64,000 nucleotides of DNA, from NCBI GenBank assembly GCA_964017235.1, contig OZ024935.1:5084001-5148000 (forward strand). Direction: 5' to 3'. Position 1 is the first letter of the stretch. Every line of letters starts with the position of its first letter. The notes beneath the pieces were generated by a model. It had not been told where the DNA came from, ran no database searches, and worked only from the letters and a program-made list of their open reading frames with translations. Origin of the DNA: Sabellastarte sp. h YS-2021 (Eukaryota > Annelida > Polychaeta > Sabellida > Sabellidae). This document shows positions 2,112 to 38,565 of the stretch, one piece after another. A program made the position numbers and the translations under genes.

Positions 2112-2116
2112 TTACT
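2112..2116. repeat. Target site duplication TTACT, left copy
   Basis: TTACT directly abuts the left LTR and recurs at 13817-13821 directly after the right LTR. Five base pairs is a usual duplication length for Ty3/Gypsy integrases. Confidence 0.8.
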
Positions 2117-2315: not shown

Positions 2316-2409
2316 TTCCTCCCAGTTTTGTTTAGAACAGGTCCATCAGTCATCTGAGGTTGCCAAGGTGGGTGGTTGCCAGACCAGACCAGGGTTTTTA
2401 ACGCACTTG

Positions 2410-2815
2410 CAACAGTCCTTGACATATAGAACAGTGTTGCCTATTCTTTTGTTTCTTTCCAGAGAACTTACAACAGTTCTTGACATGTAGAACAATGTTC
2501 AGTCTCCTCAACAGTCTCCTCAACAGTTCAGGAACCTGAAGAACAATGTTGAGAATTCATCTGATTTCCTTTTGAGACTGAGCACATGAACATTCATGGA
2601 GTAATAGCACAACAGTTCTGGAACTGGTAGAACAATGTTGATAATTCCTCTGTTTTAGAAGATGTTTAACAGTTCAGTATGATGAACAATGTTGCTGTGA
2701 TCCCTCCAACTGTCTGGTAACCGGGACAATGTTGTGAGATATCCATAACAGTCCTTTACATAGAACAATGCTGATGAATTTTGCAACAGTTCATTTCACC
2801 ATGTAGAACAATGTT
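2410..2815 (-). repeat. Eight imperfect hairpin repeats in the 3' untranslated part of the Gypsy element
   Basis: On the plus strand each unit reads roughly CAACAGTTC, 8-14 variable bases, then GAACAATGTTG, so each unit folds back on itself. Units are at 2410-2439, 2471-2500, 2521-2551, 2610-2640, 2668-2694, 2707-2734, 2747-2773 and 2784-2815. The arms are conserved while spacers and loops vary. They lie between the nuclease stop codon and the 3' LTR, so they would be in every sense transcript. No function can be assigned. Confidence 0.7.
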
Positions 2816-2855
2816 AATACTCCCTCTGTCTTACTCATTCATACACACAATACCC

Positions 2856-4280
2856 TCAAACCTTTAGACCATAGAGATCTGCAGCATTCTTTCTGGTAGT
2901 GGTCAGCACTGCCCTGATAGTTGTGTCTTTCAGTTGAGCTACACGTCGAGCTACTTCCTCCAGACCATAAGGGGTATTGTAAGCACAGCTTCCATGAACT
3001 GGGGGTGTCAAGTATGGAGAATCTGTTTCTAACAGGATCTGATCTAAATCCAAGTGCTCCACGACAGCTTCAAGTTCTGGATTTTGGTCCTTTCGCAAAA
3101 GCAAACCAGTGACTCCAATCCTTATTCTAGGAAACCTTGCCAACCAGTCGCGAAACGTAGACATACCCCCGTTAAAACAGTGAAAATGAAGGCTTATACC
3201 CTCTCTATGGAATGCAGGTATCTCCTCCTCAAAGACCTTGAGACAGGTTCCATAAGCATCCATACTGTTTCCCTTATCCCTGCAGTGAATCACAAGGGCT
3301 TTGTGGTGGTACAACTCTTCCCTAACAAATATCTGTAGGAACTTCCTACAAAGCAGGGTTTGTTGAACTTTAAACTTTCCAAAGTGGCCACTGAAGTCAA
3401 ATCCAATCTCACCAAGGCCAACACAACGTGGATCCTTGATGACGCTTGTTCTAACCCTCTCGAAATCCTCGTCTGTGGCAGTATGGGTGAGTTTGGGGTG
3501 CAAACCGTGCGTGTGGAAAATTCTGGAATCTCTCTTCCACATCTGTCTCAGTTCCTTACTTGGTGCTTTGTGACAAAAGTTTGCAACAACGGCTTCAAGA
3601 TACACTGGAGTTGCCGGCATTGGACCTCTGTATAGAATAGTGTCTATATCGCGACAATGGCTGGTCCACCTCAGTTTATCCAAGTGCATATGAGAGCCGA
3701 TGAAGCTCACCCTGTCCCTGCTTTTCACCTTCAGGAAACTGGTCCTTCTTTGCACCCATTCTGACTCTTCGTAAGGGGTACCAATATCCTTCAGAACCTT
3801 GGATTTAGGCGGACTCTCTAGTATTGAAGAGCTAACACTCCTCACATCCTCAGAAGGTGATCCCAGTAAAACAGCTTCCTCTGAGGGAGTAAGACTACTT
3901 GCTAAATCCCCAGATTCACACTGGTTACCCTGATCCACCTCCATTGGCTGCTCTTCCGCTGGTACATCCTTGGTTCCTTCAATTTCTGGTTGAGCAACCT
4001 GGACTGGTTGAACAACCTTGGCATCTGTTGGAACATCCTGAACTGGTGTATCCACAGTTGAAATAGACTGGACATCCTGGTTTTCAGCCTCGAGATTTGT
4101 TGTTTCGAGATTTGTTGTTTCGAAAGACTGCCTAGGTAATGTTACCTTCTCCTCCCCAATGCAATTAAGAACAGTGGAAAAAACTCTCCAGTTCGTAAGG
4201 ACAGCAACGCAATTAGGGGGATCCACAATTGGCTTGGATGTCAGTTGATTCCCGGTCAGCCACTGGTGAAAAGCCTTCAC
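2856..4280 (-). CDS. TatD-family metal-dependent nuclease (TATDN2-like), captured by the retroelement
   Basis: The C-terminal half (about residues 190-474 of this reading) is a full TatD hydrolase domain, a TIM-barrel enzyme that uses divalent metal to cut nucleic acid. Metal-ligand motifs are all present: HMH (residues 197-199), GEIG (E291), VIHCRD (H332), HFHCF (H367) and LLETDSPYL (D420). The domain style, with a long acidic Ser/Pro-rich N-terminal tail, resembles animal TATDN2 rather than bacterial TatD. The first codon here is GTG and is not a natural start. The frame is open upstream to a TGA near 4383, so the protein is probably made by continuation from the RS-rich ORF (a -1 shift) or by splicing. 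It sits in the env position of the element, with no transmembrane segment. All catalytic residues are intact, although gag is broken. Confidence 0.85.
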   Translation of the reverse strand: MKAFHQWLTGNQLTSKPIVDPPNCVAVLTNWRVFSTVLNCIGEEKVTLPRQSFETTNLETTNLEAENQDVQSISTVDTPVQDVPTDAKVVQPVQVAQPEIEGTKDVPAEEQPMEVDQGNQCESGDLASSLTPSEEAVLLGSPSEDVRSVSSSILESPPKSKVLKDIGTPYEESEWVQRRTSFLKVKSRDRVSFIGSHMHLDKLRWTSHCRDIDTILYRGPMPATPVYLEAVVANFCHKAPSKELRQMWKRDSRIFHTHGLHPKLTHTATDEDFERVRTSVIKDPRCVGLGEIGFDFSGHFGKFKVQQTLLCRKFLQIFVREELYHHKALVIHCRDKGNSMDAYGTCLKVFEEEIPAFHREGISLHFHCFNGGMSTFRDWLARFPRIRIGVTGLLLRKDQNPELEAVVEHLDLDQILLETDSPYLTPPVHGSCAYNTPYGLEEVARRVAQLKDTTIRAVLTTTRKNAADLYGLKV

Positions 4281-4339
4281 AAACTTGGCATCTTCCTCAG
4301 GAATAGTAAATCTGGTGTCAACAGGAAACCACTTATTTT

Positions 4340-5398
4340 TTACAACAAGCTGCAGTAACTCTTGCTGCTTCCAGAGACATCAAAGATTGGTTGTAACGGA
4401 CCATTCTTTCTTGATTGGGCATCTCCTTCCAAGTGGCGAAGGCAATTGACAGATGCTTTCCAACGACATGTTTTTAATACTGGGAGATGGTTGGCACAGA
4501 TGGTCATGTAACAAGCATGCCTCTTCTGTTTTTTCTTAGGAACAACCACTTCCAATGTTTCAGAAGATGATCTCTTTAAAGTGTTGGCATTGTTGTTATT
4601 CATATCTTTAATAGTAACTTCCCTAACCAGTTTAGTAGATGGAGTTACTTTCTTTAGTGGTTCCTTGTCACCTTTTTCTTTAGGTATAGTGACCTTTGGT
4701 TTGGTACTCTCTACAACCTCCTTTGGCTGGGTGACGACTGTTGCATGAGGAGCACATACTACAGGAACAGCCGCGGATGAGGCAGGCGCCGCTGAGACAC
4801 CACAAGCTGCTGCCATCATCTCTCTAACTTTCGTACTGCTAGTTTCCAACAACAGTCCTTGGCTGTAGACTTCCATGCTTGATGCTGTAGTCTCAACAAT
4901 GCGCTTAATGGTGTTGAAATCCACAAAACTGTACAGTTCTTTCAGCATCCTTATCATCTGCTCGTTGAGTGAACGAGTTGAAGATGCAGGTGAATGTTCA
5001 TGTACCCGTGCTCTTGAAGACTGAGTAGACTCTGAGCGAGAGTAAACTGTACGTCTAGAACAAGAGACAGAGCGCCTCCTTCGTCTTGGCGGTAGATCAA
5101 ATGTAACCCTACGCTCTGACCTGGTTTGTTCAGTAGGGCCTCCTTCAATCCTGGTTACAACAGATCTTGGTCTAGATCTGTATGAAGCAGAAGATTGATC
5201 AGATCTTGAACTAGATCTACCCTGATCTGGTTGACTTGTGACAGTTGAAGATCTCTGGTCAGATCTTTCGTTGTTGTGAGATCCTGATCTTCGACTTGAG
5301 GAAGTAGATCTCTGGCTAGATCTATCCGTGTTAGTATGTGACCTTGATCTCTGGTTTGAGCTATTTCTTGAAGTGGTGATTTCTTTCTTGTCTGCCAT
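4340..5398 (-). CDS. RS-rich nuclear-type protein of the retroelement, upstream of the TatD domain
   Basis: 352 residues from an ATG. Residues 1-130 are dense in Arg-Ser dipeptides, like splicing-factor RS domains. A short predicted helical part follows (around LNEQMIRMLKELYSFV), then a Lys-rich stretch with a basic nuclear-localisation-type motif PKKKQKR. The end is Cys/His-rich and could bind zinc. It stops just before the TatD frame opens: the two overlap by about 40 nt and differ by a -1 shift, with no canonical slippery heptamer seen. A good 3' splice site (TTTCCTTTCTACAG) ends at 5407, nine bases before the ATG, which suggests expression from a spliced mRNA. Together with the TatD domain it may be one RS-TatD protein. 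The function is inferred only. Confidence 0.65.
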   Translation of the reverse strand: MADKKEITTSRNSSNQRSRSHTNTDRSSQRSTSSSRRSGSHNNERSDQRSSTVTSQPDQGRSSSRSDQSSASYRSRPRSVVTRIEGGPTEQTRSERRVTFDLPPRRRRRSVSCSRRTVYSRSESTQSSRARVHEHSPASSTRSLNEQMIRMLKELYSFVDFNTIKRIVETTASSMEVYSQGLLLETSSTKVREMMAAACGVSAAPASSAAVPVVCAPHATVVTQPKEVVESTKPKVTIPKEKGDKEPLKKVTPSTKLVREVTIKDMNNNNANTLKRSSSETLEVVVPKKKQKRHACYMTICANHLPVLKTCRWKASVNCLRHLEGDAQSRKNGPLQPIFDVSGSSKSYCSLL

Positions 5399-5399
5399 T

Positions 5400-5425
5400 T
5401 TGATTCCTGTAGAAAGGAAACATCA
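5400..5425 (-). promoter_or_regulatory. Candidate 3' splice acceptor for the RS-TatD message
   Basis: On the coding strand a pyrimidine-rich tract ends TTTCTACAG, with the exon starting at 5406 and the ATG context CAAAATGG just after. With the donor-like CTG/GTGAGT in the 5' LTR (13636), it would give a subgenomic mRNA that skips gag-pol, as in elements with an env gene. This is inference from consensus only. Confidence 0.45.
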
Positions 5426-5560: not shown

Positions 5561-8500
5561 TTAAATATAGTCCTGCAAATGACGCGGTCTCCTCCTTTCA
5601 CAACCACTTCTGCTGGGCTGTAATTCAGGTAGCTGATCTCCAGAATCAAGCTGTTCAGTCTCGAGTGTAGATTCTGGCGAAACTGGGTCATCTGGAAACA
5701 ATTGTACTTTCTCCTGATAGTATTCTGGCAGACTGACATCTGTATTATCTGGCTCATTGTCAAACAGCCATTCCAAACAGAAATCATCTTCATTTTCAGG
5801 ATCCTCTTGGTCAAGGTCGTTCAAAATTTTACTTCGTTTCCTGCAAAGCCACAAAGGAATGGAACGATCTTCACAAGGCTTTAACCTATCATGATGTAGG
5901 ACAAATGACTTCCTCTTGTCAGCTACTTCAAAAAGAATAGGTGAGATAACCTTGAAGATCACATATGGGCCTTTCCATACCGTCTGTAATTTAGGACTTA
6001 TGCCAATTTTTCTAGCTGAATCAAGGACATACACGAGATCACCAATCTCATACGTAGTCACTTTCAACTTGAGGTCATAGTCCCTTTTCTGTCTTTCTTG
6101 ACTGGACTGCAAGGACTCCCTTGCAAGGGTATGGACTTGACGAAGAATTTGCTGTAGCTTTGTGACATATTCTGCGGAAGTTATTTCTTCTTGACCAATA
6201 GAGCCAAACATCAGATCTACTGGCAACATGACTTCTCTGCCAAGCATCATCATGTTAGGGGTAAATCCTGTGTGTCTGTTGACGGTTGAACGAATAGCAC
6301 CTGCTAGCTGCTGGAGGTGTTCATCCCAGGACTTCTGATTGCTTTTCAGGAAACACCGAATCAGCTGCAGTAAGGTGCTGTTATAACGCTCTACCTGACC
6401 ATTGGAGCATGGTCTATAGGGTGTAGTCCTGGTTTTGGTAATCTGGAGCAAATCACAGACAGTTGCAAACAGTTTACCATCAAAATTATTTCTTTGGTCA
6501 GTGTGAATCTCCACTGGGCATCCTAAATGTGAGATGAATCCATCAACTATACAACTGGCGGTTTCTTCTGCATTCTGATGTGGTAATGGAAAACATTCAA
6601 GCCACTTAGTGAACTGATCCACAATCATCAGGACATACTGGTTACCTTTGGTACTTGAAGTAAATGGACCTAGAATATCCACATGCACATGTTCTAATGG
6701 AGAGCCTACGTGGCACTGTCCAAGTCCTGCTTTGGCTTTGGTTTTGTTTTTTTTACTCCTGTTGCACACCTGACAGGATTTCACGAAAAGTTCTACATCC
6801 CTGGACATCTTGTACCAAATAAAAGACTTTCGGATACGCAAGAGCGTCTTTGCGATACCCATGTGTCCAGTTAATGCTATATCATGATTAAGGGATAAAA
6901 CTTCTTGTTTCAGGCATTCTGGAACTACTAATAATTGTTTTTCCTCAAGGACATCCTTCCAGGAGTACCACAATAAATTGTTTTGGTAACTTAAACGACT
7001 TCTATTGAGGTAGAAATACTTAACTGTTGGACTGCACAAGGACAACTCCCTTTGACTAGGGGTTATGTCAGTTTGTAGCCAAACAATTAGTTTTTTCAAA
7101 CAAGGATCATTCTGCTGGAGTTTTGACAGCTCTTCTTCTGTATAAGAGAGAATCCACTGGATATCTGGCTCATCTGGTGAGACAGAAGCTGTTCTAACGG
7201 CTAGAGGAACGACATCATCGACATCAGATTCAAACCTAGACCACTGCTGATGGGCCCTGGTACAGAATTTACAACCTTGACAAGGTAAATCTGCCAGGTC
7301 AACACCAGCTTGGTAACAGTTGCAGAAATTTGTTTCATCTGGGATTCTGGATAATCCATCAGCGTTTCCATGTCTGTTTCCAGGTTGATGTTGGACAATC
7401 ATGTTGAATTGACTCAATTCTTCTAACCATCTGGCTAGTTGACCCTCTATGTACTTGAAACGAAGAAGCCAAGTTAGGCTATTGTGGTCCGATAGTGACG
7501 GATAGTGACGGAATTCTCTTGTGAATTTGATTACAGCTAGGAGCTCTCTTCTGGTCACACAATATTTGCGTTGTTCTGGGGTCAGAACATAACTTCCGTA
7601 GCTAATCACTTTTTTATCACCATCTTGCAGTTGTGAAAGCACATCACCTATTGCTGTTCCTGAAGCGTCCGTATCCAGAATGAAAACGTCGGTTGCATTC
7701 GGATAGGCCAAAATGGGCGCACTGACCAAGTTCTCCTTGACGGTGTCAAATGCTTCTTGGTGACTTTCTTGCCATTCAAAAGTTGCTTTACTTCCCGTCA
7801 ATTTGTAAAGTATGGAAGTAAGACCTGCATAATCCTGGATATGATCACAATGGTAATTCACAAATCCTAGGAATTTCTCTACATCTTTCACAGACTGTGG
7901 AATTGGCCATTTCTTTACTTTGGTAATGTTGTCTGGATTCACAGCAACACCTTCGAAACTAACCACATGTCCCAAAAATGTAGTTTCAGTATGGAACAAG
8001 CTACACTTTTTGGGCTTAAGTTTCAGATTGTGCTGACGAAACCTTTGAAAGGTTATTTCCAAGTTAGTCACATGATCTGTGAAGTCTTTGCCTAGAACAA
8101 TTACATCGTCGATGTATGCCAACGTTTTATTCCATGTTAACCCTCTCAGGAAAAATTGAATCACTCTTTGGAATGTGGCGGGAGCATTACAAAGCCCAAA
8201 CACCATCCGTTTGTGTTCAAATAGTCTGTACTTAGTAATGAAGGCTGTTTTGTGCTGATCTTTTTCATCAATTTCTATTTGCCAATAACCACTCGCCATA
8301 TCAAGTGTGGAAAAATATCTATTACCAGATAGCTGGTCCAAACATTGTGATATGGATGGTAATGGAAATAAGTCTTTGACTGTTTTGGCATTCAAGGAAT
8401 GGTAATCCACACAGTATCGGACAGAGCCATCTCTCTTCCTCACAAGAACTGGTGCAGAGGCCCAGTCTGAGGAAGACTCTGAGATTACCCCGATATCCAA

Positions 8501-9100
8501 CATCTGCTTCAGGTTCTCCTCTTCTTCACCTTCAAAATCCATTGGTGTATGCCGCATAGGATGTTTGACTGGACGTTCTGTACCAGTGTCTATGGTGTGT
8601 TTAATTTCCTTGAAACATCCTATATCATGACTCCCCTTGGAAAATATATCTTGATACTTCAGTAGTAAAGATCTCAAGATTGTTGCTTCCTCTTCATTTA
8701 AGAACTTCTTGGAACGCTGGAACAATCCTTCAAGATGATCTGGAAGACTAGTATGAAGTTCAAGACTGGTAGGAGGTTTCTCAAGATTGCTAGGATGTTT
8801 TTCAAGACTGGTAGCGTTGACCTTTTTGGAATTCTCAGTCAAAACAACATCACATTCCATTGCATATCCTAACACATGACCAACATGAATTAGAATTGGG
8901 ACCATTTCCGCTGCCTGAACAATAGTGTTGGGAGCACTAGTTAACCGAGCACTAGTTCTTAAAACACTGCTAGGTGGTAGGTATAATTTTTCATGGCCAA
9001 TAACTGGGACACAAGAGTATTGATTCCCCTCGCTAGTTTTGAATTGATTCAATCTCAGTGAATACCTATTCAACATGAGAGTACCTTTATCCAAGTTCAA
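5561..9100 (-). CDS. pol: Ty3/Gypsy pol: reverse transcriptase, RNase H, integrase
   Basis: 1,179 residues open without interruption. RT spans about residues 195-360, with LDMASGYWQI and the catalytic YIDD at 329-332. RNase H spans about 440-590, with D478, E519 and D538. The integrase zinc finger HHCC lies at about 739-779. The integrase core D-D-E is D808 (HVDILG), D868 (HTDQ) and E904 (VERYN). A C-terminal GPY-type module (WKGPYVIFKV) follows, then an acidic tail. The first codon is TTG, not a start: the protein continues from protease through a 1 nt frameshift near 9115. The RT-RNase H-integrase order is normal Gypsy. A 12 bp local duplication (about 7489-7511) lies inside the RNase H region but keeps the frame. 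Confidence 0.9.
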   Translation of the reverse strand: MNLDKGTLMLNRYSLRLNQFKTSEGNQYSCVPVIGHEKLYLPPSSVLRTSARLTSAPNTIVQAAEMVPILIHVGHVLGYAMECDVVLTENSKKVNATSLEKHPSNLEKPPTSLELHTSLPDHLEGLFQRSKKFLNEEEATILRSLLLKYQDIFSKGSHDIGCFKEIKHTIDTGTERPVKHPMRHTPMDFEGEEEENLKQMLDIGVISESSSDWASAPVLVRKRDGSVRYCVDYHSLNAKTVKDLFPLPSISQCLDQLSGNRYFSTLDMASGYWQIEIDEKDQHKTAFITKYRLFEHKRMVFGLCNAPATFQRVIQFFLRGLTWNKTLAYIDDVIVLGKDFTDHVTNLEITFQRFRQHNLKLKPKKCSLFHTETTFLGHVVSFEGVAVNPDNITKVKKWPIPQSVKDVEKFLGFVNYHCDHIQDYAGLTSILYKLTGSKATFEWQESHQEAFDTVKENLVSAPILAYPNATDVFILDTDASGTAIGDVLSQLQDGDKKVISYGSYVLTPEQRKYCVTRRELLAVIKFTREFRHYPSLSDHNSLTWLLRFKYIEGQLARWLEELSQFNMIVQHQPGNRHGNADGLSRIPDETNFCNCYQAGVDLADLPCQGCKFCTRAHQQWSRFESDVDDVVPLAVRTASVSPDEPDIQWILSYTEEELSKLQQNDPCLKKLIVWLQTDITPSQRELSLCSPTVKYFYLNRSRLSYQNNLLWYSWKDVLEEKQLLVVPECLKQEVLSLNHDIALTGHMGIAKTLLRIRKSFIWYKMSRDVELFVKSCQVCNRSKKNKTKAKAGLGQCHVGSPLEHVHVDILGPFTSSTKGNQYVLMIVDQFTKWLECFPLPHQNAEETASCIVDGFISHLGCPVEIHTDQRNNFDGKLFATVCDLLQITKTRTTPYRPCSNGQVERYNSTLLQLIRCFLKSNQKSWDEHLQQLAGAIRSTVNRHTGFTPNMMMLGREVMLPVDLMFGSIGQEEITSAEYVTKLQQILRQVHTLARESLQSSQERQKRDYDLKLKVTTYEIGDLVYVLDSARKIGISPKLQTVWKGPYVIFKVISPILFEVADKRKSFVLHHDRLKPCEDRSIPLWLCRKRSKILNDLDQEDPENEDDFCLEWLFDNEPDNTDVSLPEYYQEKVQLFPDDPVSPESTLETEQLDSGDQLPELQPSRSGCERRRPRHLQDYI

Positions 9101-9474
9101 AACAGCTTTGAAATGACAAAGAAATCTAAACCAATAATTAAAGGTTCAGCTATATTAGCTACATAGAATTTCCATGTGAATGATTGCGACTCACTGAAGG
9201 AGACTTTTACTCCCTCCAACGGTTTTGCATCAATTTTCACATCTTGAATAATTCCCTCTAACTTAAGCATTCCCTTTAACTCAGGTTTATTTTCAATTTG
9301 TTAATATAGTTTACTACTCATTAAGGAAATCTGAGCGCCGGTATCTAGTAGTGCTTTGGTTTTAACACCTTGAACAGTGCAATCTACTACAGTGCTAAGG
9401 TTATCCTTGTTACTTTTTCGTGTTTTTCTACACCAAACTCTATTACACGTCTTGTGATTCACCCAATTATTCAT
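9097..9474 (-). pseudogene. Retropepsin (protease) of the Gypsy element, broken
   Basis: The frame from an ATG at 9474 encodes the aspartic-protease active site ALLDTGAQISLM. It then hits TAA at 9303-9301, continues in the same frame with a protease-like C-terminal half ending IIGLDF, and loses frame by one base near 9115, just before joining the RT reading frame. So there is one nonsense and one frameshift between the protease active site and RT. In a live copy this would be the N-terminal part of Pol, cutting the polyprotein. Confidence 0.75.
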
Positions 9475-9522: not shown

Positions 9523-10587
9523 TTACATTGGACTTCTCACCCATGGAGCTAGGTCGCATGGTGGAGTCAGAACTACCTTTAAAACCCTGTGTGGTGGTGG
9601 TGGTGGACTATGGTAGCGCTGGTTATCCCTTCTTGGGCTGGTCCTCCAGTTTGAATCATCACTCCGCTGTGGACTTCTCCTGTAGTCTCTGTTTTGTGAT
9701 GGATGGTACTGTCCAGAATGGGGACTACCATAGGTATTCCTCTGATATCCTTGACTGGATGAAGGAAACCTTTCAGGGGTACCCGGTGGTGTGTACCTAT
9801 CACATCTGGGACCGCTGTGCTGATAACCAGGGAAGTTCCATGTTGGGTCATAACCCTGAACTCTCCAGTTGGGTTGATCACTCCTGGTTGATGACCACTG
9901 TTTCCTGTCATAGCCAACATATCGCCTCCTGGGACAATTTTGTGCAAAATGTCCTGGTTCACCACAGTTATAGCATCTAGGCATGTCTTGTCTGTTTTTA
10001 TTCTCCTTTAAGACTTTATGTAGACCTGATATGACTTTGTGAAACTTCTTGTGGTGGCGACCATCTCTTCTAGATGTATGGCCCCGGGTTTGTAATGTCT
10101 TGGCCACAGACTCCTCTGATGTGGTAGAGGTGTCGGAATCAGTTGAGGGACTTGACAAGTCAGACTCAACATATTTGACACTCCTCACAGAAGCCTTCTT
10201 CCCAAGGATAGCTTTGCGTAGTTGAATAGCATCCTGCACAAATTTATAAGCATCTTCAAGGGTTGTTGGATGTTTATCAGCAGCTGCAAGCACTGCTGCT
10301 TTGTCACGACAACCCTTCATAAAAGCATCCACGAAAAATGGACTGCATGCCTCTTGCTTCTGCTCATCTGGGAATAAAGAGACTATCATTCCTTGCATTC
10401 TGGCCAAGTACTTCTCAAGATTTTCATCTTCTCGCTGTTCAGTTTGTAGAAGTTCCCATCTCAAGGCGGCAGGGGATTCCGTCTTCCCAAAGTGATCCTG
10501 GAATCTCTTCTTCAGCCAGTCAAAGTCCGATTCTTTACGGTTTGGCAGGATTCCATAATACTCCGCTGCTCCTTTCTTCAAGGACAT
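9523..10587 (-). CDS. gag: Gag: capsid C-terminal part and nucleocapsid zinc knuckle
   Basis: 354 residues from an ATG inside a longer ancestral gag frame. The first ~135 residues fit the retrotransposon gag/capsid fold (WELLQTEQREDENLEKYL). A CX2CX4HX4C zinc knuckle follows (CYNCGEPGHFAQNCP). The tail is rich in Arg, Ser, Tyr and Pro, ends PPPPP, and could bind RNA. Upstream the frame is closed by stops near 10615, next to a small duplication of CTAAGGTC. The fragment is therefore no longer continuous with the N-terminal gag region at 10.7-12.1 kb. It forms the particle shell in live relatives. Confidence 0.78.
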   Translation of the reverse strand: MSLKKGAAEYYGILPNRKESDFDWLKKRFQDHFGKTESPAALRWELLQTEQREDENLEKYLARMQGMIVSLFPDEQKQEACSPFFVDAFMKGCRDKAAVLAAADKHPTTLEDAYKFVQDAIQLRKAILGKKASVRSVKYVESDLSSPSTDSDTSTTSEESVAKTLQTRGHTSRRDGRHHKKFHKVISGLHKVLKENKNRQDMPRCYNCGEPGHFAQNCPRRRYVGYDRKQWSSTRSDQPNWRVQGYDPTWNFPGYQHSGPRCDRYTPPGTPERFPSSSQGYQRNTYGSPHSGQYHPSQNRDYRRSPQRSDDSNWRTSPRRDNQRYHSPPPPPHRVLKVVLTPPCDLAPWVRSPM

Positions 10588-10731
10588 GGCAAAGTTATGG
10601 ATCTTCTCAGACTAAGGTCCAGGCTAAGGTCTTAGCCAGTAGCTCAAACTGAGAAATGTATCCATTCCAATGTTCACCTTCAAAGGACAGCTTTGGTACG
10701 TGAATCTTGCTTTTCATCTGGTCTTTATGGG

Positions 10732-11274
10732 TCACACTTTTTTCTGAACTTCATCTTCAGAGCTGTCAGATGAGACATGGACATTGTCATCCACCTGACT
10801 GACTACACTGACACGTGGTGTCTTGTTGTTGTAAACCCCATTTGGGCTTTTTTCACGAATAGCAGCTGATACATGCTGAATACATTCATCTTGGTCCTCA
10901 TTCCTTGGCATTGAACATCTACTAGTGGTCCTAAGGTAGCTAGGAACAGGAATATACAACGGCTGAGACATCCTGACCTGCTTCTGAGGAACCTTCGCAA
11001 TAGTTTGTTCTTCTGAAGACCCTGGGTAATTAAACTCTGAAACTGGCCTCAAGTCCAATCCTGTCTACTGAAGACCTGGTAAATTGGACGGAAGCTCATA
11101 TTCCAAATTAAAGGTATCTCGCATAGTTCTGAGCTGGCGGTTCACTTTCTCCAATGTAGGCTTACGCTTGGCTTCAAATATCTTGCTTTGGACATTGACA
11201 TTTTGCTCGAAAGCTTTTTTAATGTCATCAAGACAATTCTCATCAGCCACACCTTCCAGTTGTTGCTTTTGCTG
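10732..11274 (-). pseudogene. Middle part of gag, interrupted
   Basis: One frame runs from about 11274 to 10732 with a TAG at 11067-11065 (LPGLQ-stop-TGLDL), read as two open pieces. The first has a helical Lys/Glu-rich stretch; the second is Ser/Pro-rich and acidic at the end. It joins the upstream HhH ORF by a -1 shift near 11290 and is separated from the capsid ORF by further stops. No catalytic motif is present. It is the linker between the N-terminal gag region and capsid. Confidence 0.55.
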
Positions 11275-11276
11275 GA

Positions 11277-12074
11277 CTAAGATCCGTTCATGCTTCTGTC
11301 ACTTTCCACTCTGTCAAGTTTTTGATGTTTCTCCTCGATATCAGTCATTCTCTGATCCAAGCCATCCACTCTGGACTTAAGCTCAAGTTGAGCCGTATGG
11401 GTTGAATGAATTGAACGGTTCAATTCTTCCACTGTGCGGAACAACTTTGACACTTTGTTGCTGGTTTCAACCTGGGTAGATTCCAATTTCTTCACAGTCT
11501 TCTCTGTTTTCGATGTGTTACCCTTGATTGTGATCAGAACTGACCAAATGTCATCAAGTCCTGGCTTTCCAGTAAGTACTGGAATAGAGTCCGAAGTCTC
11601 GGGTTCAAGTAATACCTTTCCCTGACTGGGAAAAACCTGATAGAATAAGCCCGACAACTCTACTTTTGGTGACTGTAACTTCTGATGATCAGCTGATGTT
11701 CCCGACAAATGCAAAGATTCTTTGTCAGGGAAAGCATACTGGTCATCCGAATCTTCATCGTCCTTCTCCTCCACCTCAGGGGAATCTTTCACGCCAACCT
11801 GAACTACAAGGTGTTCTTGACTGAAGCAAACCTTGTTATCAGATGACACATTTTTGTCACTGAATATGATGAAACCCGAGTGTTGGAGCTTCTTGATCAC
11901 CGAATTGCTGACAACATTTGACTTCTGAAGGTCATGCAAGGTCAGCGTACCACCATTTTCTTCTCTCAGGTTCAATATCCTGTCTGCCTTTGCTTCACCA
12001 ATGCTTTTTATTGACAATAAATCAGCCTTGGTTGCATCTTCAATGTGGACTAGTTTTTTTCCACCGGTAGCCAT
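11277..12074 (-). CDS. N-terminal gag protein with helix-hairpin-helix and coiled coil
   Basis: 265 residues from an ATG, the first coding sequence after the leader. Residues about 15-50 (LLSIKSIGEAKADRIL) look like a helix-hairpin-helix DNA-binding motif of the ComEA/UvrC kind. The middle is acidic and Ser-rich. Residues about 190-265 have heptad-like spacing consistent with a coiled coil (VKKLESTQVETSNKVSKL). It ends at a frameshift into the downstream gag part. An HhH at the head of a Gypsy gag is unusual and suggests nucleic-acid binding. The position is certain, the role is inferred. Confidence 0.6.
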   Translation of the reverse strand: MATGGKKLVHIEDATKADLLSIKSIGEAKADRILNLREENGGTLTLHDLQKSNVVSNSVIKKLQHSGFIIFSDKNVSSDNKVCFSQEHLVVQVGVKDSPEVEEKDDEDSDDQYAFPDKESLHLSGTSADHQKLQSPKVELSGLFYQVFPSQGKVLLEPETSDSIPVLTGKPGLDDIWSVLITIKGNTSKTEKTVKKLESTQVETSNKVSKLFRTVEELNRSIHSTHTAQLELKSRVDGLDQRMTDIEEKHQKLDRVESDRSMNGS

Positions 12075-13615
12075 TTTTTTAAAGTGAATTTACTCAATTC
12101 AACCAACAAAAAAACCTGACAACCAACAAACTGACAAACACTGTTAATTCAATAACCAACTAGCAAAACAATGCCAAGTCAATTAATGAAATTGTATACA
12201 AACAATACACAAATCCGATAGTCCAACTTGCAAGGCGGAGCAAAGTTAAACCGAATTTAATCAAACCCAATCTGCACGACAATGCAAAGATATAGGTCAA
12301 AGTACAATAAATAACTTGCAAGACAAAGCAAAAGTTATTTAGCAAAAATCACAAAAGTTACAAATGAAATGAAGAAAATTTGAAATACTGTTCAAAAATT
12401 TACACTTTTAAAGAAAATACACTACTTTATTATTTTTTCCCAAAACTAAAAACATGAAATTCACAGTACTACCTAATTCAGATTGAATTTAATTTTGTTA
12501 TTGAATCTCAATAAATTTCAATCACGAAAATTTTTTTTACGCAATAAAAAATACTTTATTGTAAAGCAATAAAAAGTTTTTTTTTTCCCTATTGAAAAAT
12601 GTTCGCAATAAAAATTTTATTCAAAATTTTAACTACAACATTTTATCATGCAACTAAATGATAAATAATGGGCCTTAACTACTGTTAGTAAGGGCAATTT
12701 CTGTCAAGGTTCAATATAAAAATAATTTGAAATAATATTTAGAATACTATTCAAAATTGAATTCAAATCACTAGAAAATTACCACAAAATTCTATGACAG
12801 AAAATTAAATTTACTTGTAAATGTACTACTAATTTACTATAAAGATAAATATTTTACTACAATTACTGTCAAAAATACTATATTTACTTCAAATTTCCTC
12901 ACAAGAACCACTATAAATACACTAGAAAAAATGTACTACATACACAGCTCTAGAAACACTATTTTGCTTTGAAAAAATACAGTTGTGTTGAACAATACAG
13001 GTATTTTATTTACCAAATAACGGTGCCAACGACCGACCAATTATTTGAAAACAAAAAGTACCCAATTGATCGATATACTCACAGAGTTTTAACAAACAAC
13101 TGACAACCAAATTGAGCGATGAACAAATATGACAAGAAAAGCAATAAATAGCAGCAGAAAAACGAAATTTATACTGCCACACACAAATATGAGATTTACA
13201 ATATCAATGTACCGAAACCGTACACTGTTTTAAAGCAAATATATTAGTGACAAAATACCTACAAATATGATGTAAACTAGTGTATATTTCATAGAAGTTT
13301 CACCGGAAATCACACTAAGATTGCCGATTAACACACTACAAAAACGAAAATTCACGCTAAGAATTGCCGATAATTCACGCTAAGAATTACCGATAGGTGA
13401 ATTTCAAAACACTAAATTACAACATATTATACATAAACAAAGTAAAAATAACAATGAATCGAAGAAATACCTATTTTATTCACATAAAACACCAAGAAAA
13501 TTCAAAGAAATTTGAATTCACGTGGTGGACGAAATTACCACAAAGATAGTGAAAAACTTACAAAACCCATACCAGAATCTTGTGGGTGATGAAATCACAC
13601 ACTTCTGGTATCAGT
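12075..13615 (-). other. AT-rich leader of the Gypsy element
   Basis: About 1.5 kb between the 5' LTR and the first gag ATG, very AT-rich with many A and T runs and no ORF of note. It contains a near-repeat of about 30 bp (ATTCACGCTAAGAATTGCCG) around 13350-13395. An untranslated leader of this length is long for Gypsy and may hold packaging or translation signals. Nothing specific was recognised. Confidence 0.6.
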
Positions 13616-13816
13616 ATTGTAAAATAACAGACTCACCAGTAGTTATCTGTAGTGATGTGGTTGGATTTCCTTTTCAGGTCCTTTCTCTTTGGATATGCAC
13701 AGATAACTGAATGGGTTTAGTTCATTTCCTGTTCTGTACTTCCAGTGGGGAGATGCTAAAACTCAAATGGTAGGCGAACGGACTTCCATTCGAAACTACC
13801 CGGCGACTTCACTTCA
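13616..13816 (-). repeat. 5' LTR of the TatD-carrying Gypsy element
   Basis: Same unit as 2117-2315, with the same 10 bp inverted repeat. On the coding strand its last part contains CTG followed by GTGAGT (GT at 13636-13635), a good splice-donor consensus that could serve a spliced downstream mRNA. I found no convincing tRNA primer-binding site directly inside it. Confidence 0.82.
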
Positions 13817-13821
13817 TTACT
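13817..13821. repeat. Target site duplication TTACT, right copy
   Basis: Matches the left copy at 2112-2116 exactly. The pair fixes both ends of the element to the base. Confidence 0.8.
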
Positions 13822-18542: not shown

Positions 18543-19551
18543 CTAAAAGAATGAAGGGATGACCGAGGCAAAGGTGGAGGGAATGAAGGAGGGGGCCTGG
18601 GAGGCGTTCTGGAGATAAGTCCAGACTGAGGAGCTACGCCATAGACCATGAGACATGATGTTCTGCAAAGGGACATTATTGTCAAAGGCAAATGTGGCTC
18701 CAGAATGCCTGAAAGTATGGAAACCGTTGCCAGTTGGAGAGATATTGAGGGTGGCTAAAATGGATTTGAGTGCATCTCTAACCTGAGTATCTATGATCTG
18801 TTGGTAGGGAGGGAAGGATTGAGCGAACAGAGGGGCATGAGGAGGCAGGGGACGGGACTGAAGAAGAGTTTGTAATGCTCTAACTGGGCATAAGAAGAAG
18901 TTATCAATCAGGGGAAGTTGGACAATGTGTGAGGAATTTGAATCCTCAGGTGGGCCCCTGGGGGTGAAACATAAGGTCTTGCCTAAGAAAATGTCTATCA
19001 CGAGAGAATTGACGAACAGAGTGGGGAGCAATGTTGGAAAGCCTAAAAAAGGCATAAAAGGCTACCAAGAGTATTGGCCTGAATAAGGGAGGGTCCCCCA
19101 GGGAGTCACAAGCTTTGGAGATGGCATACATAGTTCTTATGTCAAATATGCCCCTAGGGGTAGGACGGAAAGGGGAAGTGATTGAAAGCCCTCTAAGGTA
19201 TCTAGAGACTGCTGGGTGTGAAAGATCCCTAGTATCCAGGTTGAAAAATTTTGCAAGTGATGAGATTGAAGAGAAGTAGTTTCGAACCACTCTGGGGGAG
19301 ATAGAATTTCTAGCCAAGAATTAAAAAAATACGAGGAGATTACTGGCAGAGACTTCAATAGGTAAATTATAGAAAACTAAAACTGACAGAAAAGTCTTAA
19401 AATGAGTCCTTTGGGCTTGAATGGCCCCTGGTCTGTATGCTCCCAAGACTCTGTGCCATGCCAGTGAAAGGAGTCCTTGTGGATCTTGAGAAGAACCTGA
19501 AATTATATGTGAAGATTGAGGTAAAAAAATTGAATAGGAACCTTGTCCCAA
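18543..19551 (-). pseudogene. Tyrosine recombinase of the DIRS-order element, two frameshifts
   Basis: The protein is read in three overlapping frames: 19551-19321 (N-terminal SAM-like part, AYRPGAIQAQRTHFKTFL), 19317-18946 (ISPRVVRNYFSSISSLAKFF through AFYAFFRLSN, which holds the first catalytic Arg) and 19055-18543 (HTFRHSGATFAF, the HxxR box, then HGLWRSSSVWTYL with the Tyr nucleophile). All four R-H-R-Y residues are therefore present, but the gene needs two frame corrections. In live relatives it integrates the circular cDNA. Confidence 0.75.
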
Positions 19552-19559
19552 GTAAAATT

Positions 19560-20235
19560 ATGAGATGATGGTGCATCATGTTATCAGAAATGCCTTTTTG
19601 TGCCAGAAAGGCCTGGCTGTCAACTGCGTCATTAACTGACGCCCCTTTGGGAAAGGAGAGATCCAGAATGACTCTCCTCTTGCCATTGTCCTTGGGCCTG
19701 GTGAGGAGGGGGGAGCAATGAAATTTGTTAAACATGATCTCAGGGAAAGGGCCCAATATGGCACCCAAGGATATTTCCTTATCTAAGTATGACTTGATAT
19801 CTGCTGGAAATTGTTTTGCTGAGTAGTGATTGGCTAACATAGTATTATTAAGACAAGTGTTATGTTGAAGGGACAAAGGAAAGCCATAGGTCAGGTACTC
19901 AATTAGTCTTTCATTGTAATAACCTTTCAAATGGTGACTCCAGGCCTCTATGTTCAAACCTGACTGGATGGGGAATCTAGCGAGCCTATAATTAGGTAAA
20001 CCAGTGGCTTGAATGACAGTGGCCATGTGGATGTTGTCCTTAAGAGTGGTGCTGGTGGGGGGGACCTACTTGGACCTATAAACTTGAAATCCATAGATGT
20101 ATGTGCCAAGAAACCCCTGGTTTTACTTGGATCATGGAAATCTCGAACGACGGTGTCAGAGAAGGTGTCAAGCTGATACCATGTGTGGCTAGGCGGAATG
20201 TGACGACGGACGACAGTTGACTCAACAGAACCCAT
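19560..20235 (-). pseudogene. DIRS-type reverse transcriptase, N-terminal fragment only
   Basis: 20235-19954 is the linker that precedes RT. After a frameshift near 20030 the frame 20026-19560 reads LNIEAWSHHLKGYYNERLIEYLTYGFPL, split here by typical DIRS spacing, then SPLLTRPKDNGKRRVILDLS and PKGASVNDAV, the conserved fingers region of DIRS/Ngaro RTs. It ends about 19560 and runs straight into recombinase sequence. The catalytic palm (motifs with Asp pairs) and RNase H, normally some 1.5 kb, are absent. Confidence 0.7.
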
Positions 20236-21054
20236 AACATTTTGATTGAAATCCTAACTTCCTACTATTACTGTCTTTGACAAAATCTTCAAATGCTGAT
20301 CTCGGATTAGATTGGTATAATTCTTGAAAATTGATCAAAATTTTTGCAGTATGGCTCACCTGGAGGAAACCCCAAACTTCACCCCTGCACTCCATGATGG
20401 TGATCTCACTACCATTATTTTTTTCATTCCAATAACAAAATTTCTGAAGTTTTTCATCATCAGAAATGAAAACCAGAGTAGTGTTTACATCAGTACTTGA
20501 CCAGTACCTGTCCATAAATTTAACAGTACACCAACGTGTGGAACAATCATAGGGGTGCAAGGGAGATTCAATAATATTGTTTGTCACCTTGTGGATGCCT
20601 TTATGAGGCTGTCGCACTGAATGGGGTTCCATATAATCAACATTTTTGTAATGAATATCATAATCAGTAAAATAATATATTCATGGTTCTGCAAATTCAT
20701 AGCTTTTCCCCTATACTTTTGCGAACCACTTGATGTAATTTCACTGTTAAAGGGGGTTTCATAACTCGTATCATCCCCCACTATACCATCAATTGGGTTA
20801 CCCATCAAAGGGTTACACATGTTCATTGCATAAGCTACATCAAAACAATTTACATAAGAAATATTACTATAATTATTTACATAATTACTGTCTTTATGAA
20901 ATAACAACCAGAGCTGCTGCTGGTATTTGGCCCAAGGTTGTACAGATTTACAGTCACTATCAATTGTCCCATTACAGCTCTTCAATTCAAATATGTCATT
21001 ATCACCCACACACCCCCTTTTAATGTCATTGGGTTCTTTACTATAGCTAACCAC
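20222..21054 (-). pseudogene. Unrecognised protein region between gag and RT
   Basis: Two overlapping frames, 21054-20584 (156 aa) and 20632-20222 (136 aa), probably one ~280 aa protein with a frameshift at about 20600. The first frame is in phase with gag across the gag TAG stop. It is rich in Asn, Tyr, Ser and Cys and more AT-biased than gag or the recombinase. The second has hydrophobic patches and VWGFLQVSHTAKIL. I do not recognise a domain. It does not show the SGNH hydrolase motif of Ngaro elements or a DIRS methyltransferase motif. Confidence 0.4.
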
Positions 21055-21087
21055 AGGGGGCAGTTGAGCAAGTGGCCCAACACAGCC

Positions 21088-22302
21088 CTAGCTAGTAGAC
21101 GCCTGCTTGTCTTTGGATTTAAGTTTCTGAAAACATTTTAACTCTGGATGGGCTGCTGTTTTGCCTTGTTTGTCACAGTAACTGCAGACATGTTTATAGT
21201 GTCCGTGACTGGAATCATGGGAGCAAACCCCTTCATTGTAAAACCTGCAAATCTTCTTTGCCTGACTTGGGTGGTTTGCCTGAGTGCCTGACATGGATAT
21301 CTGAGAAGCACTCAGACGGTTGATAGACCATTGAGTAGTGTCTTTCCAAGTTAAGTTGCCCTCCTCCAGGTCATACATTGACGTGGCCCATGCACTTCTC
21401 ACTGCTGCCCAGGGTAATGATGTGGCATCCTTCATAGATAGGATGACCTGAAGGAGGGCACTCCTGGCCATAGTTTGGTCTCTCATGTGATAGATATTTG
21501 TCAATTGTCCCACCACCCACTGAGGTAACGTAAGATCATCATAGATCACCCTTTTCTTTCCTCCTGGGGCGTGGTAGCCCTTAATGGGCCAGCGGAACTC
21601 AGGGGCTGTCTGAACAACATCCACAGAATTATACCTCCCCGACTTCCTGGACTGCCTACCTTGTAAACTTGTCCTGGCTTGCTCTTCGTAGGCCCTGAGA
21701 AGCGTTGAGACTGTGTTGGATACAGAGGGAAGTTGCCTCAGCGTCTCTAGTCATGGCAGTACCCCGTCGTTCTGTACATCCAGTTGTGTGGTGGCTGCAG
21801 CCGATGCCTGTGTCAAACCCATCGCTTGCGAAGCAATGTGTCGCCTCCCATTCTGGTATTCCTCACCACTGGTTTGCTGTGATGTAGCATTGAATGGGGG
21901 CAGTTGGACATGGCGGTGCCCCTCTTCCCGACCCACTGTATGTGACAGAACGTGAGAGAATCTGTCGCTGCCATAGGACCGTGGTGGTGTTTGACCGGCA
22001 TAAACCGTCGTTGATTGCCTTCGCTCTACTCTCTCAATTCTGCTCAGTAGAGCACGGTTTGACTCGGAAAGTTCAGTCAACACGGATAAGATGGCATTGG
22101 AGGAGTCCATGCTTCTAGGGTCGGGATCCTGGTTGGAACTGCTGGACATAGTACTCACTTGTGGCTGCAAAGCTGCCTGTATATACGATTCGTTCAAGTC
22201 CTTGTGAGTGTCCTTTCTGATTTTCCTAGTGGAAACTCTCGCTCTGGCCGAAGCAGTAACTTTCTTCCTAGCCATGGAAGGTGCTTTCTTTGAAGAAGGC
22301 AT
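21088..22302 (-). pseudogene. Gag-like protein of the DIRS-order element, one frameshift
   Basis: Starts at ATG 22302 (MPSSKKAPSMARKKV), a basic head, then a Ser-rich region with a short coiled coil (LTELSESNRALLSRIERV) and a Gln/Ser-rich part, open to 21751. After a frame change, 21624-21088 continues with a capsid-like part and a Cys/His cluster CRFYNEGVC..H..H..CSYC..H..C, a CCCH-type zinc finger typical of DIRS gags. It ends with TAG at 21090-21088. It binds element RNA in relatives. Confidence 0.65.
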
Positions 22303-22358
22303 CACAACAAATAAATACGGTCTTATTATAAAAAACAAAACCCTAAAATCCTCTGTTA

Positions 22359-22558
22359 AAAATACTTGTATACACTTCAAAATCTGAAGTTAGAATGATG
22401 GAGGGAAACTTGGTTGTGGTTACTGAAGTGTAACCCACAAGGCGATTGGACCATAGCAGTAAACAATGGTTACCACAATAAGTGGAGGAATAAGCAGATT
22501 GTGAAATTAAGGTACCTCCTAACTGAGAAAGCAGGCCCCTACCAGTCCGTGCTGTACA
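22359..22558 (-). repeat. Split direct repeat A1
   Basis: Outer 5' end of the element on its coding strand; pairs with 18171-18370. The gag ATG lies about 55 bp inside it. Confidence 0.8.
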
Positions 22559-32356: not shown

Positions 32357-32439
32357 CCAACCATTTGATCCAACCATTCAGTTAACATTTTGAAAACTCA
32401 TTTAATTTGACAACTTATTACAGTCAACAGTGCCCAAAA

Positions 32440-33492
32440 ATGGCTAGTGCTAAAGAATTTGTACAGTCACCATCTATGGAACTTCTGGAAACTTTTAAAA
32501 AAGATATGTTAATGCAGATAGCACAAGAGTTACAGTTAGAGGTGAAAAGGTCAACACGTAAACATGAACTTAAAAGGGTTATTGTTGAACAGTTAGTTGA
32601 TGAAGATGTTTTACCTGATAGTTGTTTAGAAGTGTATAAGCCTCTACGAATGGAACCTTCTGGGCAATATGAGATCAGGCGATTAGAAATTGAAAGAGAG
32701 TTAAGACTTAAAGAGCTTGAAACTCAAGCTCTAACTCAACAACGAAAAGAAGAGCTTGAGGCTCAACAGCGAAAAGAAGAGCTTGAAGCTCAAAAGGAAG
32801 AGCGTGCACTTAAACATGAAAGAGAAATGAGAGCTTTAGAACTCAATGCTCGCAGAATTGCCCATGAAGAGTCCATTGCTACCAAATTTGATTTGGGTAA
32901 AAATGTGCGACTGGTACCACCTTTCAATGAATCAGAAGTTGATAAGTACTTTCAACACTTTGAAAGAGTAGCTCAAAATTTGAAATGGCCTATAGACCAG
33001 TGGCCTTTATTGCTGCAAAGTGTTTTGAGGGGAAAGGCCCAGGAGGCATACACGGCTTTGCCAATTTCTGAATGTGTGGACTATAACTCTGTCAAAAATG
33101 CTATTTTGAAAGCATATGAGTTGGTACCAGAAGTATATCGTCAAAAATTCAGAAATTATCGTAAACAAGAAAGTCAAACTCATGTTGAATTTGCCCATGA
33201 GAAAGAAGTGTACTTTGACAGATGGTGTAATTCTAGGGAAGTAGGTACAGACTTTGAAAAGCTTAGGCAAGTCATTTTTATTGAAGAGTTCAAAAGTTGT
33301 GTCCGTGATGACATTAAGACCTATCTAGATGAACAGAAAGTTGAAAATTTGGCAAAAGCAGCAGCTTATGCTGATGACTATGCGCTAACTCACAAGTCCA
33401 CTTTCAACAAGAATAAGTCCTTTGGTCCTGCTAAAAAGTCTTATCCAGAAATAGGAAAGAAATCTGAAAATGTAGCTCCAGAAAAGAGTTGA
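32440..33492 (+). CDS. gag: Gag of body 1 (SAP-like head, coiled coil, SCAN-like capsid), intact up to TGA
   Basis: 350 residues from the ATG in CCAAAAATGGC. Residues about 1-60 resemble a SAP/helix-extension-helix segment (RKHELKRVIVEQLVDEDVLP). Residues 78-135 are a Glu/Arg/Lys coiled coil with a repeated KEELEAQQR unit. The capsid follows, and about 215-300 matches the SCAN-domain pattern (YRQKFRNYRKQES..., WCNS, FIEEFKSCVRDDIKTYLDE). SCAN domains of vertebrates are thought to come from Gmr1-like gag. It ends at TGA 33490-33492, but the same frame continues into the zinc knuckle and pol. It is the only one of the three gag copies without extra lesions. Confidence 0.82.
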   Translation: MASAKEFVQSPSMELLETFKKDMLMQIAQELQLEVKRSTRKHELKRVIVEQLVDEDVLPDSCLEVYKPLRMEPSGQYEIRRLEIERELRLKELETQALTQQRKEELEAQQRKEELEAQKEERALKHEREMRALELNARRIAHEESIATKFDLGKNVRLVPPFNESEVDKYFQHFERVAQNLKWPIDQWPLLLQSVLRGKAQEAYTALPISECVDYNSVKNAILKAYELVPEVYRQKFRNYRKQESQTHVEFAHEKEVYFDRWCNSREVGTDFEKLRQVIFIEEFKSCVRDDIKTYLDEQKVENLAKAAAYADDYALTHKSTFNKNKSFGPAKKSYPEIGKKSENVAPEKS

Positions 33493-35613: not shown

Positions 35614-35616
35614 CTT

Positions 35617-38260: not shown

Positions 38261-38266
38261 TAGCTT

Positions 38267-38389
38267 ATGATGGCTATTAATAGAAACACTGTTAAAGATA
38301 GGAATTCAGTGTATAAACAGGACTTTGAAAAAGTAACATATGGCGTCCGCATGGATACGCCCTGTCCAGAAGCTGTATTTAAATTGTAA
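38267..38389 (+). CDS. Short tail ORF of body 1, separated from pol by the LINE
   Basis: 40 codons starting ATGATGGCT and ending KVTYGVRMDTPCPEAVFKL. In body 3 the same codons follow the pol TAG in frame, two codons downstream, so this is probably the remaining C-terminal end of an ancestral longer Pol after loss of RT-RNase H. No domain is recognised. Confidence 0.35.
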   Translation: MMAINRNTVKDRNSVYKQDFEKVTYGVRMDTPCPEAVFKL

Positions 38390-38554: not shown

Positions 38555-38565
38555 AAGGGGGGAGG
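38555..38565 (+). other. Polypurine tract before LTR 2
   Basis: AAGGGGGGAGG immediately before TGTTAC. The same tract precedes LTR 3 (45738-45748) and LTR 4 (50254-50264). It primes plus-strand DNA synthesis in LTR elements. Confidence 0.8.

What the first reader, a model, noticed from the sequence alone, without database searches (positions are those of the whole stretch)
2856..5406. Gypsy retrotransposon carrying an RS-rich protein and an intact TatD nuclease in the env position
Seen: inside one LTR pair with matching target duplications, downstream of integrase, there is an RS-rich ORF with an NLS-like motif followed by a TatD domain with every metal ligand. Known: TatD/TATDN enzymes are DNases or RNases, and animal TATDN2 has a long N-terminal extension and acts on RNA. 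Inference: the element captured a TATDN2-like gene, or many invertebrate TATDN2-like predictions are really retroelement proteins. A nuclease encoded by an LTR element outside RT/RNase H/IN could act on R-loops, replication intermediates or host defence RNAs. The nuclease stays open although gag is broken, which may mean selection or chance.
Basis: partly seen in the sequence, partly recalled or inferred. Interest (0 to 1): 0.88.

Follow-up and report, generated by a model that had tools for sequence, protein, structure and literature searches.

The report
TatD nuclease gene inside Gypsy retrotransposons
A family of Gypsy-type jumping elements in this genome carries, where a retrovirus would have its envelope gene, a third gene for a TatD-type DNA/RNA-cutting enzyme that recurs in copy after copy and is under selection in at least one branch, so it is a regular part of the element and not a stray host gene.

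Summary
Confirmed and extended. The window's minus strand holds a Ty3/Gypsy element (LTRs 13615-13816 and 2116-2315, 191 of 202 columns identical, target duplication GTAA) with gag, pol and, after integrase, a third ORF. The "RS-rich" and "TatD" ORFs are one gene (RS/NLS tail, CX4CX9HX4H zinc finger, TatD domain), cut by two frame changes in this copy; relatives have it as one ORF.

It is not a chance capture. The genome gave 649 TatD candidates (147 scored); integrase-bearing pol lies upstream on the same strand in 29 of 37 sampled hits, and 11 of 11 LTR pairs found (window included) carry TatD before the 3' LTR. Four ORF3 types occur, metal ligands are intact, and TatD pN/pS is about 0.11 in one lineage (0.96 in a very young one). 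ORF3 is exchanged between elements: window and L024 differ at pol dS 0.16 while their TatD silent sites are saturated. A 3' splice-site-like sequence precedes ORF3 in two types.

Best reading: a TATDN2-like nuclear auxiliary nuclease, analogous to the DEDDy-exonuclease ORF3s of bdelloid elements; a new variant of a known kind. Substrate and role are inferred.

The parts
13817..13820 (-). target-site duplication, 5' side (GTAA on the element strand)
13615..13816 (-). 5' LTR, 202 bp, TG...ACAATA; contains a donor-like CTG|GTGAGT also present in the L024 LTR
   Evidence: donor reading is inference
13598..13614 (-). primer-binding-site region (CTGATACCAGAAGTGTG; in L046 CTGGTACCAGAAGTGTG)
   Evidence: assigned by position
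9526..12089 (-). gag remains: N-terminal part with a weak HHH match (11280-12089), middle (10735-11064), capsid/zinc-knuckle part (9526-10611), in separate frames here; an open frame of at least 858 aa spans the first parts in L046
9118..9399 (-). protease region, out of frame with RT-IN in this copy
   Evidence: 43.6% to P0167 residues 1-94
5561..9145 (-). pol ORF, 1194 aa: RT, RNase H, H2C2, integrase core, IN C-terminal domain
5407..5425 (-). 3' splice-site-like sequence (pyrimidine-rich, ending CTACAG) 8 nt before the ORF3 start codon; the like also in L024, L018, L020, L021 and L028
   Evidence: use of the site is inferred
4472..5398 (-). ORF3, first frame: RS-rich disordered N-terminus, helical segment, KKKQKR basic motif, start of the zinc finger
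   Evidence: disorder and helices from the P0005 model
4363..4473 (-). ORF3, second frame: rest of the CX4CX9HX4H zinc finger and following stretch
2859..4376 (-). ORF3, third frame: helical region, linker and TatD domain
2865..3704 (-). TatD nuclease domain, ligands HxH, E, H, H, D all present
2316..2329 (-). polypurine tract (AAAACTGGGAGGAA) abutting the 3' LTR
   Evidence: by comparison with L024
2116..2315 (-). 3' LTR, 200 bp
2112..2115 (-). target-site duplication, 3' side (GTAA)

Best explanation
The feature is the third gene (ORF3) of a group of Ty3/Gypsy LTR retrotransposons with several lineages. ORF3 encodes one protein: a disordered N-terminus (RS-rich in the window's type) with basic NLS-like motifs, a CX4CX9HX4H zinc finger with a helical region, and a C-terminal two-metal TatD nuclease. 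SHOWN: it lies between integrase and the 3' LTR in many copies, is under purifying selection in at least one lineage with its active site intact, and is exchanged between elements as a module. INFERRED: it is made from a spliced subgenomic RNA, as env would be; enters the nucleus by its basic motif; is brought to nucleic acid by the RS/zinc-finger part; and cuts RNA or DNA there as TATDN2 does, most likely clearing RNA:DNA hybrids or abnormal ends at the element's own transcription, cDNA or integration intermediates. It is an auxiliary enzyme, not an envelope. My probability is about 0.35 for this functional step; the confidence given is for the anatomy and the element-gene claim.
For: Element gene: LTR pair and TSD; pol with integrase sequence upstream on the same strand in 17 of 20 plus 12 of 17 TatD hits, a sample of every 4th of the 147 scored; 11 of 11 LTR pairs with TatD close to the 3' LTR (6 by position; 5 by reading 350 nt); one copy with 100% identical 204-bp LTRs around gag, pol and an 831-aa ORF3 frame; three copies lose homology to it within 6 nt of the LTR end. 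One ORF: P0001, P0005, P0010, P0018, P0020. Selection: lineage D TatD pooled pN/pS 0.108 and 0.117 over six distinct places; lineage B 0.24 (9 against 10 differences); window-L028 dN/dS 0.20. Ligands complete in 28 of 29 rows, the other row being truncated. Fold of P0005: TM (target-normalised) 0.89 to S. aureus YcfH, 0.81 to TATDN3. Module exchange. Not env: no 19-residue stretch with mean hydropathy above 1.46 in five proteins. Splice acceptor 8 nt before the start codon of types A and B and L028. Precedent: PMC5408684 (passages).
Against: Lineage C shows pN/pS 0.96 (107 against 30 pooled differences, very young copies): no sign of selection. 8 of 37 sampled TatD hits had no same-strand integrase in the stretch read. 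The one lineage C and one lineage D element tested gave no LTR pair. 11 of the 40 LTR places are unpaired and have no scored TatD nearby. No acceptor-like sequence stands at the place looked at in lineage C (start of P0010, probably an internal Met); lineage D was not looked at. No transcript, protein or activity evidence. The window copy is broken.
Confidence: 0.9

Rival explanations
1. Counter-defence: ORF3 is an enzyme against host silencing or sensing (piRNA precursors, R-loops or extrachromosomal DNA at new copies), and its N-terminal part is swapped because the host factors that it meets change.
For: The RS/zinc-finger part is exchanged separately from TatD (L028 against window: pS 0.49-0.84 N-terminal, 0.07-0.31 in TatD), and whole ORF3s are swapped between elements, a pattern expected of host-facing modules. 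A basic motif is present.
Against: No positive selection was shown; exchange also follows from template switching alone, as PMC5408684 argues for bdelloid ORF3s (passages).
Confidence: 0.25
2. Passenger: a host TATDN2-like gene was captured long ago and is carried along without benefit to the element.
For: Lineage C shows no constraint; bdelloid ORF3s showed no significant departure from neutrality (PMC5408684, passages).
Against: Lineage D pN/pS about 0.11, ligands complete in 28 of 29 rows read, the same zinc-finger/TatD layout in lineages only about 24-30% identical.
Confidence: 0.1
3. Neighbour gene: TatD is a host gene next to, or overrun by, a retroelement.
For: The window alone could not exclude it; 8 of 37 sampled TatD hits have no same-strand integrase in the stretch read.
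Against: 11 of 11 LTR pairs contain it; 147 scored places of 649 candidates; element ends coincide at different sites.
Confidence: 0.02
4. Envelope substitute: ORF3 takes an env-like part in spread between cells.
For: Env position and env-like 3' splice site.
Against: No transmembrane-like stretch in five ORF3 proteins tested; confident TatD fold; basic, nuclear-type motifs.
Confidence: 0.04

Closest known systems
Bdelloid rotifer LTR retrotransposons (Vesta, Juno) with DEDDy-exonuclease or GDSL-esterase ORF3 (PMC5408684; passages read)
   Same: Enzymatic, non-envelope ORF3 after pol; a 3'-5' nuclease type; modular exchange of ORF3 between elements.
   Different: A different nuclease superfamily (TatD metal-dependent barrel, not DEDDy), with an RS-rich tail and zinc finger; purifying selection visible here in one lineage, whereas that paper reports no significant departure from neutrality.
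Orchid Ty3/Gypsy elements with an AlkB (2-ODD) m6A demethylase ORF (PMC9289625; abstract and outline)
   Same: A captured nucleic-acid-modifying enzyme in an additional ORF of a Gypsy element.
   Different: A demethylase with activity shown in vitro, in a plant; here a nuclease domain, no activity shown.
TATDN2 (human, medaka)
   Same: Group II HxH TatD domain at the C-terminus, long N-terminal extension often with NLS (PMC10085689 and PMC12709183, passages).
   Different: ORF3 has a CX4CX9HX4H zinc finger and lies in a mobile element (147 scored TatD places of 649 candidates); descent was not tested against a TATDN2 sequence.
Bacterial YcfH/TatD
   Same: Fold and metal ligands.
   Different: About 20-30% identity; no N-terminal extension; element proteins fall outside the bacterial group.

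Membership tests
Ty3/Gypsy LTR retrotransposon | Two direct LTRs with short target duplication | tested here: met
   202/200 bp, GTAA
Ty3/Gypsy LTR retrotransposon | pol order RT-RNase H-integrase | tested here: met
Ty3/Gypsy LTR retrotransposon | gag with zinc knuckle, and protease, ahead of RT | tested here: met
   both present, but in broken frames in the window copy; open in L046/L024
TatD nuclease family (PF01026) | Profile match above the curated cut-off | tested here: met
   126 bits, cut-off 27
TatD nuclease family (PF01026) | Metal ligands H,H,E,H,H,D | tested here: met
   28 of 29 rows, the window among them; L027 is truncated; two places appear twice in the rows
TatD nuclease family (PF01026) | Barrel fold like solved TatD enzymes | tested here: met
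   on P0005, not on the window copy
TatD nuclease family (PF01026) | Nuclease activity | not testable with these tools
   no experiment
TATDN2 clade | HxH motif (group II) | tested here: met
   HMH or HCH in the full rows; group as defined in PMC10085689 (passages)
TATDN2 clade | Groups with TATDN2 in a tree including TATDN1/2/3 | not tested
   held element proteins, database TatD proteins (mostly bacterial-type) and one nematode protein (P0023) only
TATDN2 clade | Extended N-terminus, often with NLS | tested here: met
   long disordered N-terminus, KKKxKR-type motif in types A and B; a general feature, not diagnostic
LTR-retrotransposon enzymatic ORF3 (as in bdelloids) | Enzyme ORF between integrase and 3' LTR in many copies | tested here: met
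Envelope gene | Transmembrane or fusion features | tested here: not met
   maximum mean hydropathy over 19 residues 0.86-1.46 in five proteins

The most novel reading that the evidence does not exclude
ORF3 is a plug-in, host-facing nuclease module: Gypsy lineages trade whole ORF3s, and the RS/zinc-finger targeting part separately from the TatD blade, to keep a nuclear enzyme that removes host-made obstacles (R-loops, silencing RNAs, trapped cDNA) matched to changing host defences; and many invertebrate gene models named TATDN2 are this retroelement protein.
Probability: 0.22. Interest if true: 0.88.

Novelty: new variant of a known kind. Interest (0 to 1): 0.72.

Why it matters
LTR elements with enzymes beyond gag-pol are few (bdelloid and orchid cases above), and their use is mostly unknown. 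Here one TatD-type nuclease is a recurrent, exchanged and, in one lineage, selected part of an abundant Gypsy group that has young copies, so its benefit to the element can be tested. It also warns that TATDN2 gene counts and expression in invertebrates may in part be counts of a retrotransposon, and it links a host R-loop/replication-stress enzyme family to mobile elements.

Tried and rejected
Neighbour-gene and chance-capture readings were tested and rejected. Fusions of pol and TatD in one database protein: none of the 120 listed of 4931 pol relatives has PF01026. Viral contig scans with TatD and pol found no relative. The prokaryote-genome scan found 9 loci, all bacterial records or bins, 25-30% identical. 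The N-terminal/zinc-finger part folded alone gave no usable model (mean pLDDT 39.6) and was not searched. The hairpin-looking repeats before the 3' LTR do not fold better than shuffles (z 0.47). The Nab2 match of the RS ORF is below cut-off and was ignored. My first LTR ends were too wide and gave no target duplication; replaced. The count of TatD copies by the window's own protein did not complete.

Literature: searches (8 papers; 0; 27, of which 20 listed; 6), on TATDN2 or TatD with retrotransposon, LTR retrotransposon/gypsy or transposable element, listed no paper whose title or start of abstract describes TatD in an LTR element; subscription papers are not held. PMC6962438 (passages) shows a predicted TATDN2 beside transposon-like genes in the giant squid Hox region; not analysed. 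One search was too broad to use.

Full report
1. What is in the window. The minus strand carries, from 13816 down to 2116, an LTR element with gag remains, pol and two further open frames. The LTR ends were fixed by comparison with a copy whose LTRs are identical (L046:1201-1404 and L024:7731-7934, 204 bp, 100%): TG...ACAATA. In the window this gives 202 and 200 bp, 191 identical columns, 9 mismatches and 2 gap positions, and the four bases outside each end are GTAA on the element strand. The other copy has TTAT on both sides. A primer-site-like and a polypurine tract abut the LTRs.

2. The ORFs. Pol has RT, RNase H, H2C2 and integrase core hits. The last ORF has TatD_DNase at 2.2e-36. Database relatives show that the RS-rich ORF and the TatD ORF are one gene: P0001 (709 aa, cluster of 70), P0005 (821 aa, 33) and P0010 (682 aa, 60) run through both parts. 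In the window the gene is in three frames, 5398-4472, 4473-4363 and 4376-2859; gag is in three pieces and the protease part is out of frame. The window copy is therefore a dead element; a copy with long open gag, pol and ORF3 frames exists.

3. It recurs. The genome that holds the window (1.79 Gb, unnamed) gave 649 TatD candidates, of which the best 147 were scored, all above the family cut-off. I took every 4th (37). For 20 I read 10 kb: pol including integrase sequence lies upstream on the same strand in 17, not in L014, L022, L026 (in L010 a second TatD copy lies between). For the other 17 I read 3 kb, from 4 to 1 kb upstream of the domain: 12 have it, L040 has only gag/protease sequence, L029 has pol on the opposite strand, L031, L036 and L043 have none. 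Total 29 of 37. The sample comes from the best-scoring 147, not from all 649.

4. It lies inside LTR pairs. The window's 3' LTR finds 40 scored places of 167 candidates. Eleven same-strand pairs 8-16 kb apart are among them, the window's included. In 6 a scored TatD hit (the window's own TatD added by me) lies 472-880 nt before the 3' LTR; in the other 5 a 350-nt stretch read at the expected place encodes TatD at 94.8-100% to P0001. So 11 of 11. Of the 18 unpaired LTR places, 6 have a scored TatD just before them, 1 has one 7-14 kb downstream, and 11 have neither. Three copies of the L024 type lose homology to it within 6 nt of the LTR end.

5. Lineages. Four ORF3 types appear: A (window, L028), B (L018, L020, L021, L024; P0005 95.6-100%), C (L016, L017, L019, L022, L025, L026; P0010 93-99%), D (L009-L015, L023, L027; 676-682 aa where open in full). 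D is only about 24-30% identical to the others but has the same CX4CX9HX4H zinc finger ahead of the TatD domain. In a tree A-C group at 97/95, A-D at 91/86, and all with the nematode protein P0023 at 100/98 apart from the other database TatD proteins; long branches make this provisional.

6. Module exchange. Window against L024: 91.4% identical at the DNA level through gag-pol to 5469, between pol and ORF3, then 65-72% in the ORF3 pieces (81% in one of 101 nt) and 73-80% in the 3' end and LTR. Pol dS is 0.157 while TatD silent sites are saturated (pS 0.82). Genes inherited together should not differ so, hence recombination. L028 against window: pol dS 0.21 and TatD dS 0.25 agree, but the RS/zinc-finger part between has pS 0.49-0.84, so a second breakpoint lies near 3924-4073 and targeting part and blade are swapped apart.

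7. Selection. TatD pooled pN/pS: D 0.108 over 14 rows (one place counted twice), 0.117 over six distinct places, with 0.099 for the zinc-finger part; B 0.24 (9 against 10 differences); window-L028 dN/dS 0.20; C 0.96 (107 against 30), no constraint seen. Pooled pairs are not independent. Window against the five LTR-pair copies read, over about 115 codons: pN 0.026-0.033, pS 0.093-0.114 by a rough count. For comparison pol gives dN/dS 0.14-0.19. Ligands HHEHHD in 28 of 29 rows; L027 is truncated.

8. Structure and expression. The P0005 model has a confident TatD barrel and a largely disordered N-terminus; Foldseek gives target-normalised TM 0.89 to S. aureus YcfH, 0.81 to TATDN3, 0.75 to TATDN1. 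No hydrophobic stretch in five proteins. A pyrimidine-rich stretch ending CAG stands 8 nt before the ORF3 ATG in the window, in four B copies and in L028, though A and B ORF3s are saturated at silent sites; it is absent at the place looked at in two C copies, and D was not looked at. A donor-like GTGAGT near the LTR 3' end is the same in window and L024 LTRs. Splicing is inferred.

9. Mechanism. Group II TatD enzymes have the HxH motif and typically bind two metals; TATDN3, of that group, has 3'-exonuclease and AP-endonuclease activity; TATDN2 is group II with an extended N-terminus (PMC10085689, passages) and is reported as a structure-specific RNase acting on R-loops (PMC12709183, passages, citing earlier work). 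By analogy ORF3 is most likely a nuclear nuclease that clears hybrids or abnormal ends at the element's own intermediates (about 0.35), or acts against host silencing (about 0.25).

10. Novelty. Enzymatic ORF3s in LTR elements are known (PMC5408684, passages; PMC9289625, abstract). A TatD ORF3 was not found in the library (titles and abstract starts only). New variant of a known kind.

11. Limits. Host species unnamed; whether it is a mollusc was not tested. P0001, P0005 and P0010 are so close to this genome's copies that they may come from the same species, so spread to other species is open. Gypsy clade not assigned.

Noticed in passing
G000:C2:3520142-3536350 (L010, L014, L023): Five lineage-D TatD units in tandem about 3.85 kb apart, with one pol seen ahead of the array; in two units (L010, L014) the open frame reads back into a stretch that resembles (recalled) a Pao-type protease, so ORF3 looks fused to another element's fragment.
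   Followed up: partly
G000:C19:30984941-31064358: Four TatD hits spaced about 26.2 kb, apparently a tandem segmental duplication.
   Followed up: no
window 11280-12089, L046 frame from 2927: A helix-hairpin-helix-like domain (PF12836 6.8e-6, just under the cut-off) at the N-terminus of this Gypsy gag.
   Followed up: partly
window 2401-2830: Several imperfect CAACAGTTC...GAACAATGTTG units (by eye) between the TatD stop and the 3' LTR; present in at least one other copy (P0002 reads into it), but no better folding than shuffles.
   Followed up: partly
window 32386-50000: Tandem composite repeat: SCAN-like gag, zinc finger, integrase without RT, followed in the first two units by a LINE-type (recalled) RT ORF; the integrase ORF occurs three times (33493, 40676, 47842) at about 7.2 kb steps.
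   Followed up: partly
window 56623-59130 (-): LRR plus TIR ORF of 835 aa, Toll-like-receptor type.
   Followed up: partly
window 18543-22389 (-): Tyrosine-recombinase remnant (PF00589 below cut-off) with a DIRS-like (recalled) RT fragment.
   Followed up: no
PMC6962438, Hox cluster figure legend: A predicted TATDN2 lies among transposon-like genes in the giant squid Hox region (passages); it could be the same kind of element.
   Followed up: no
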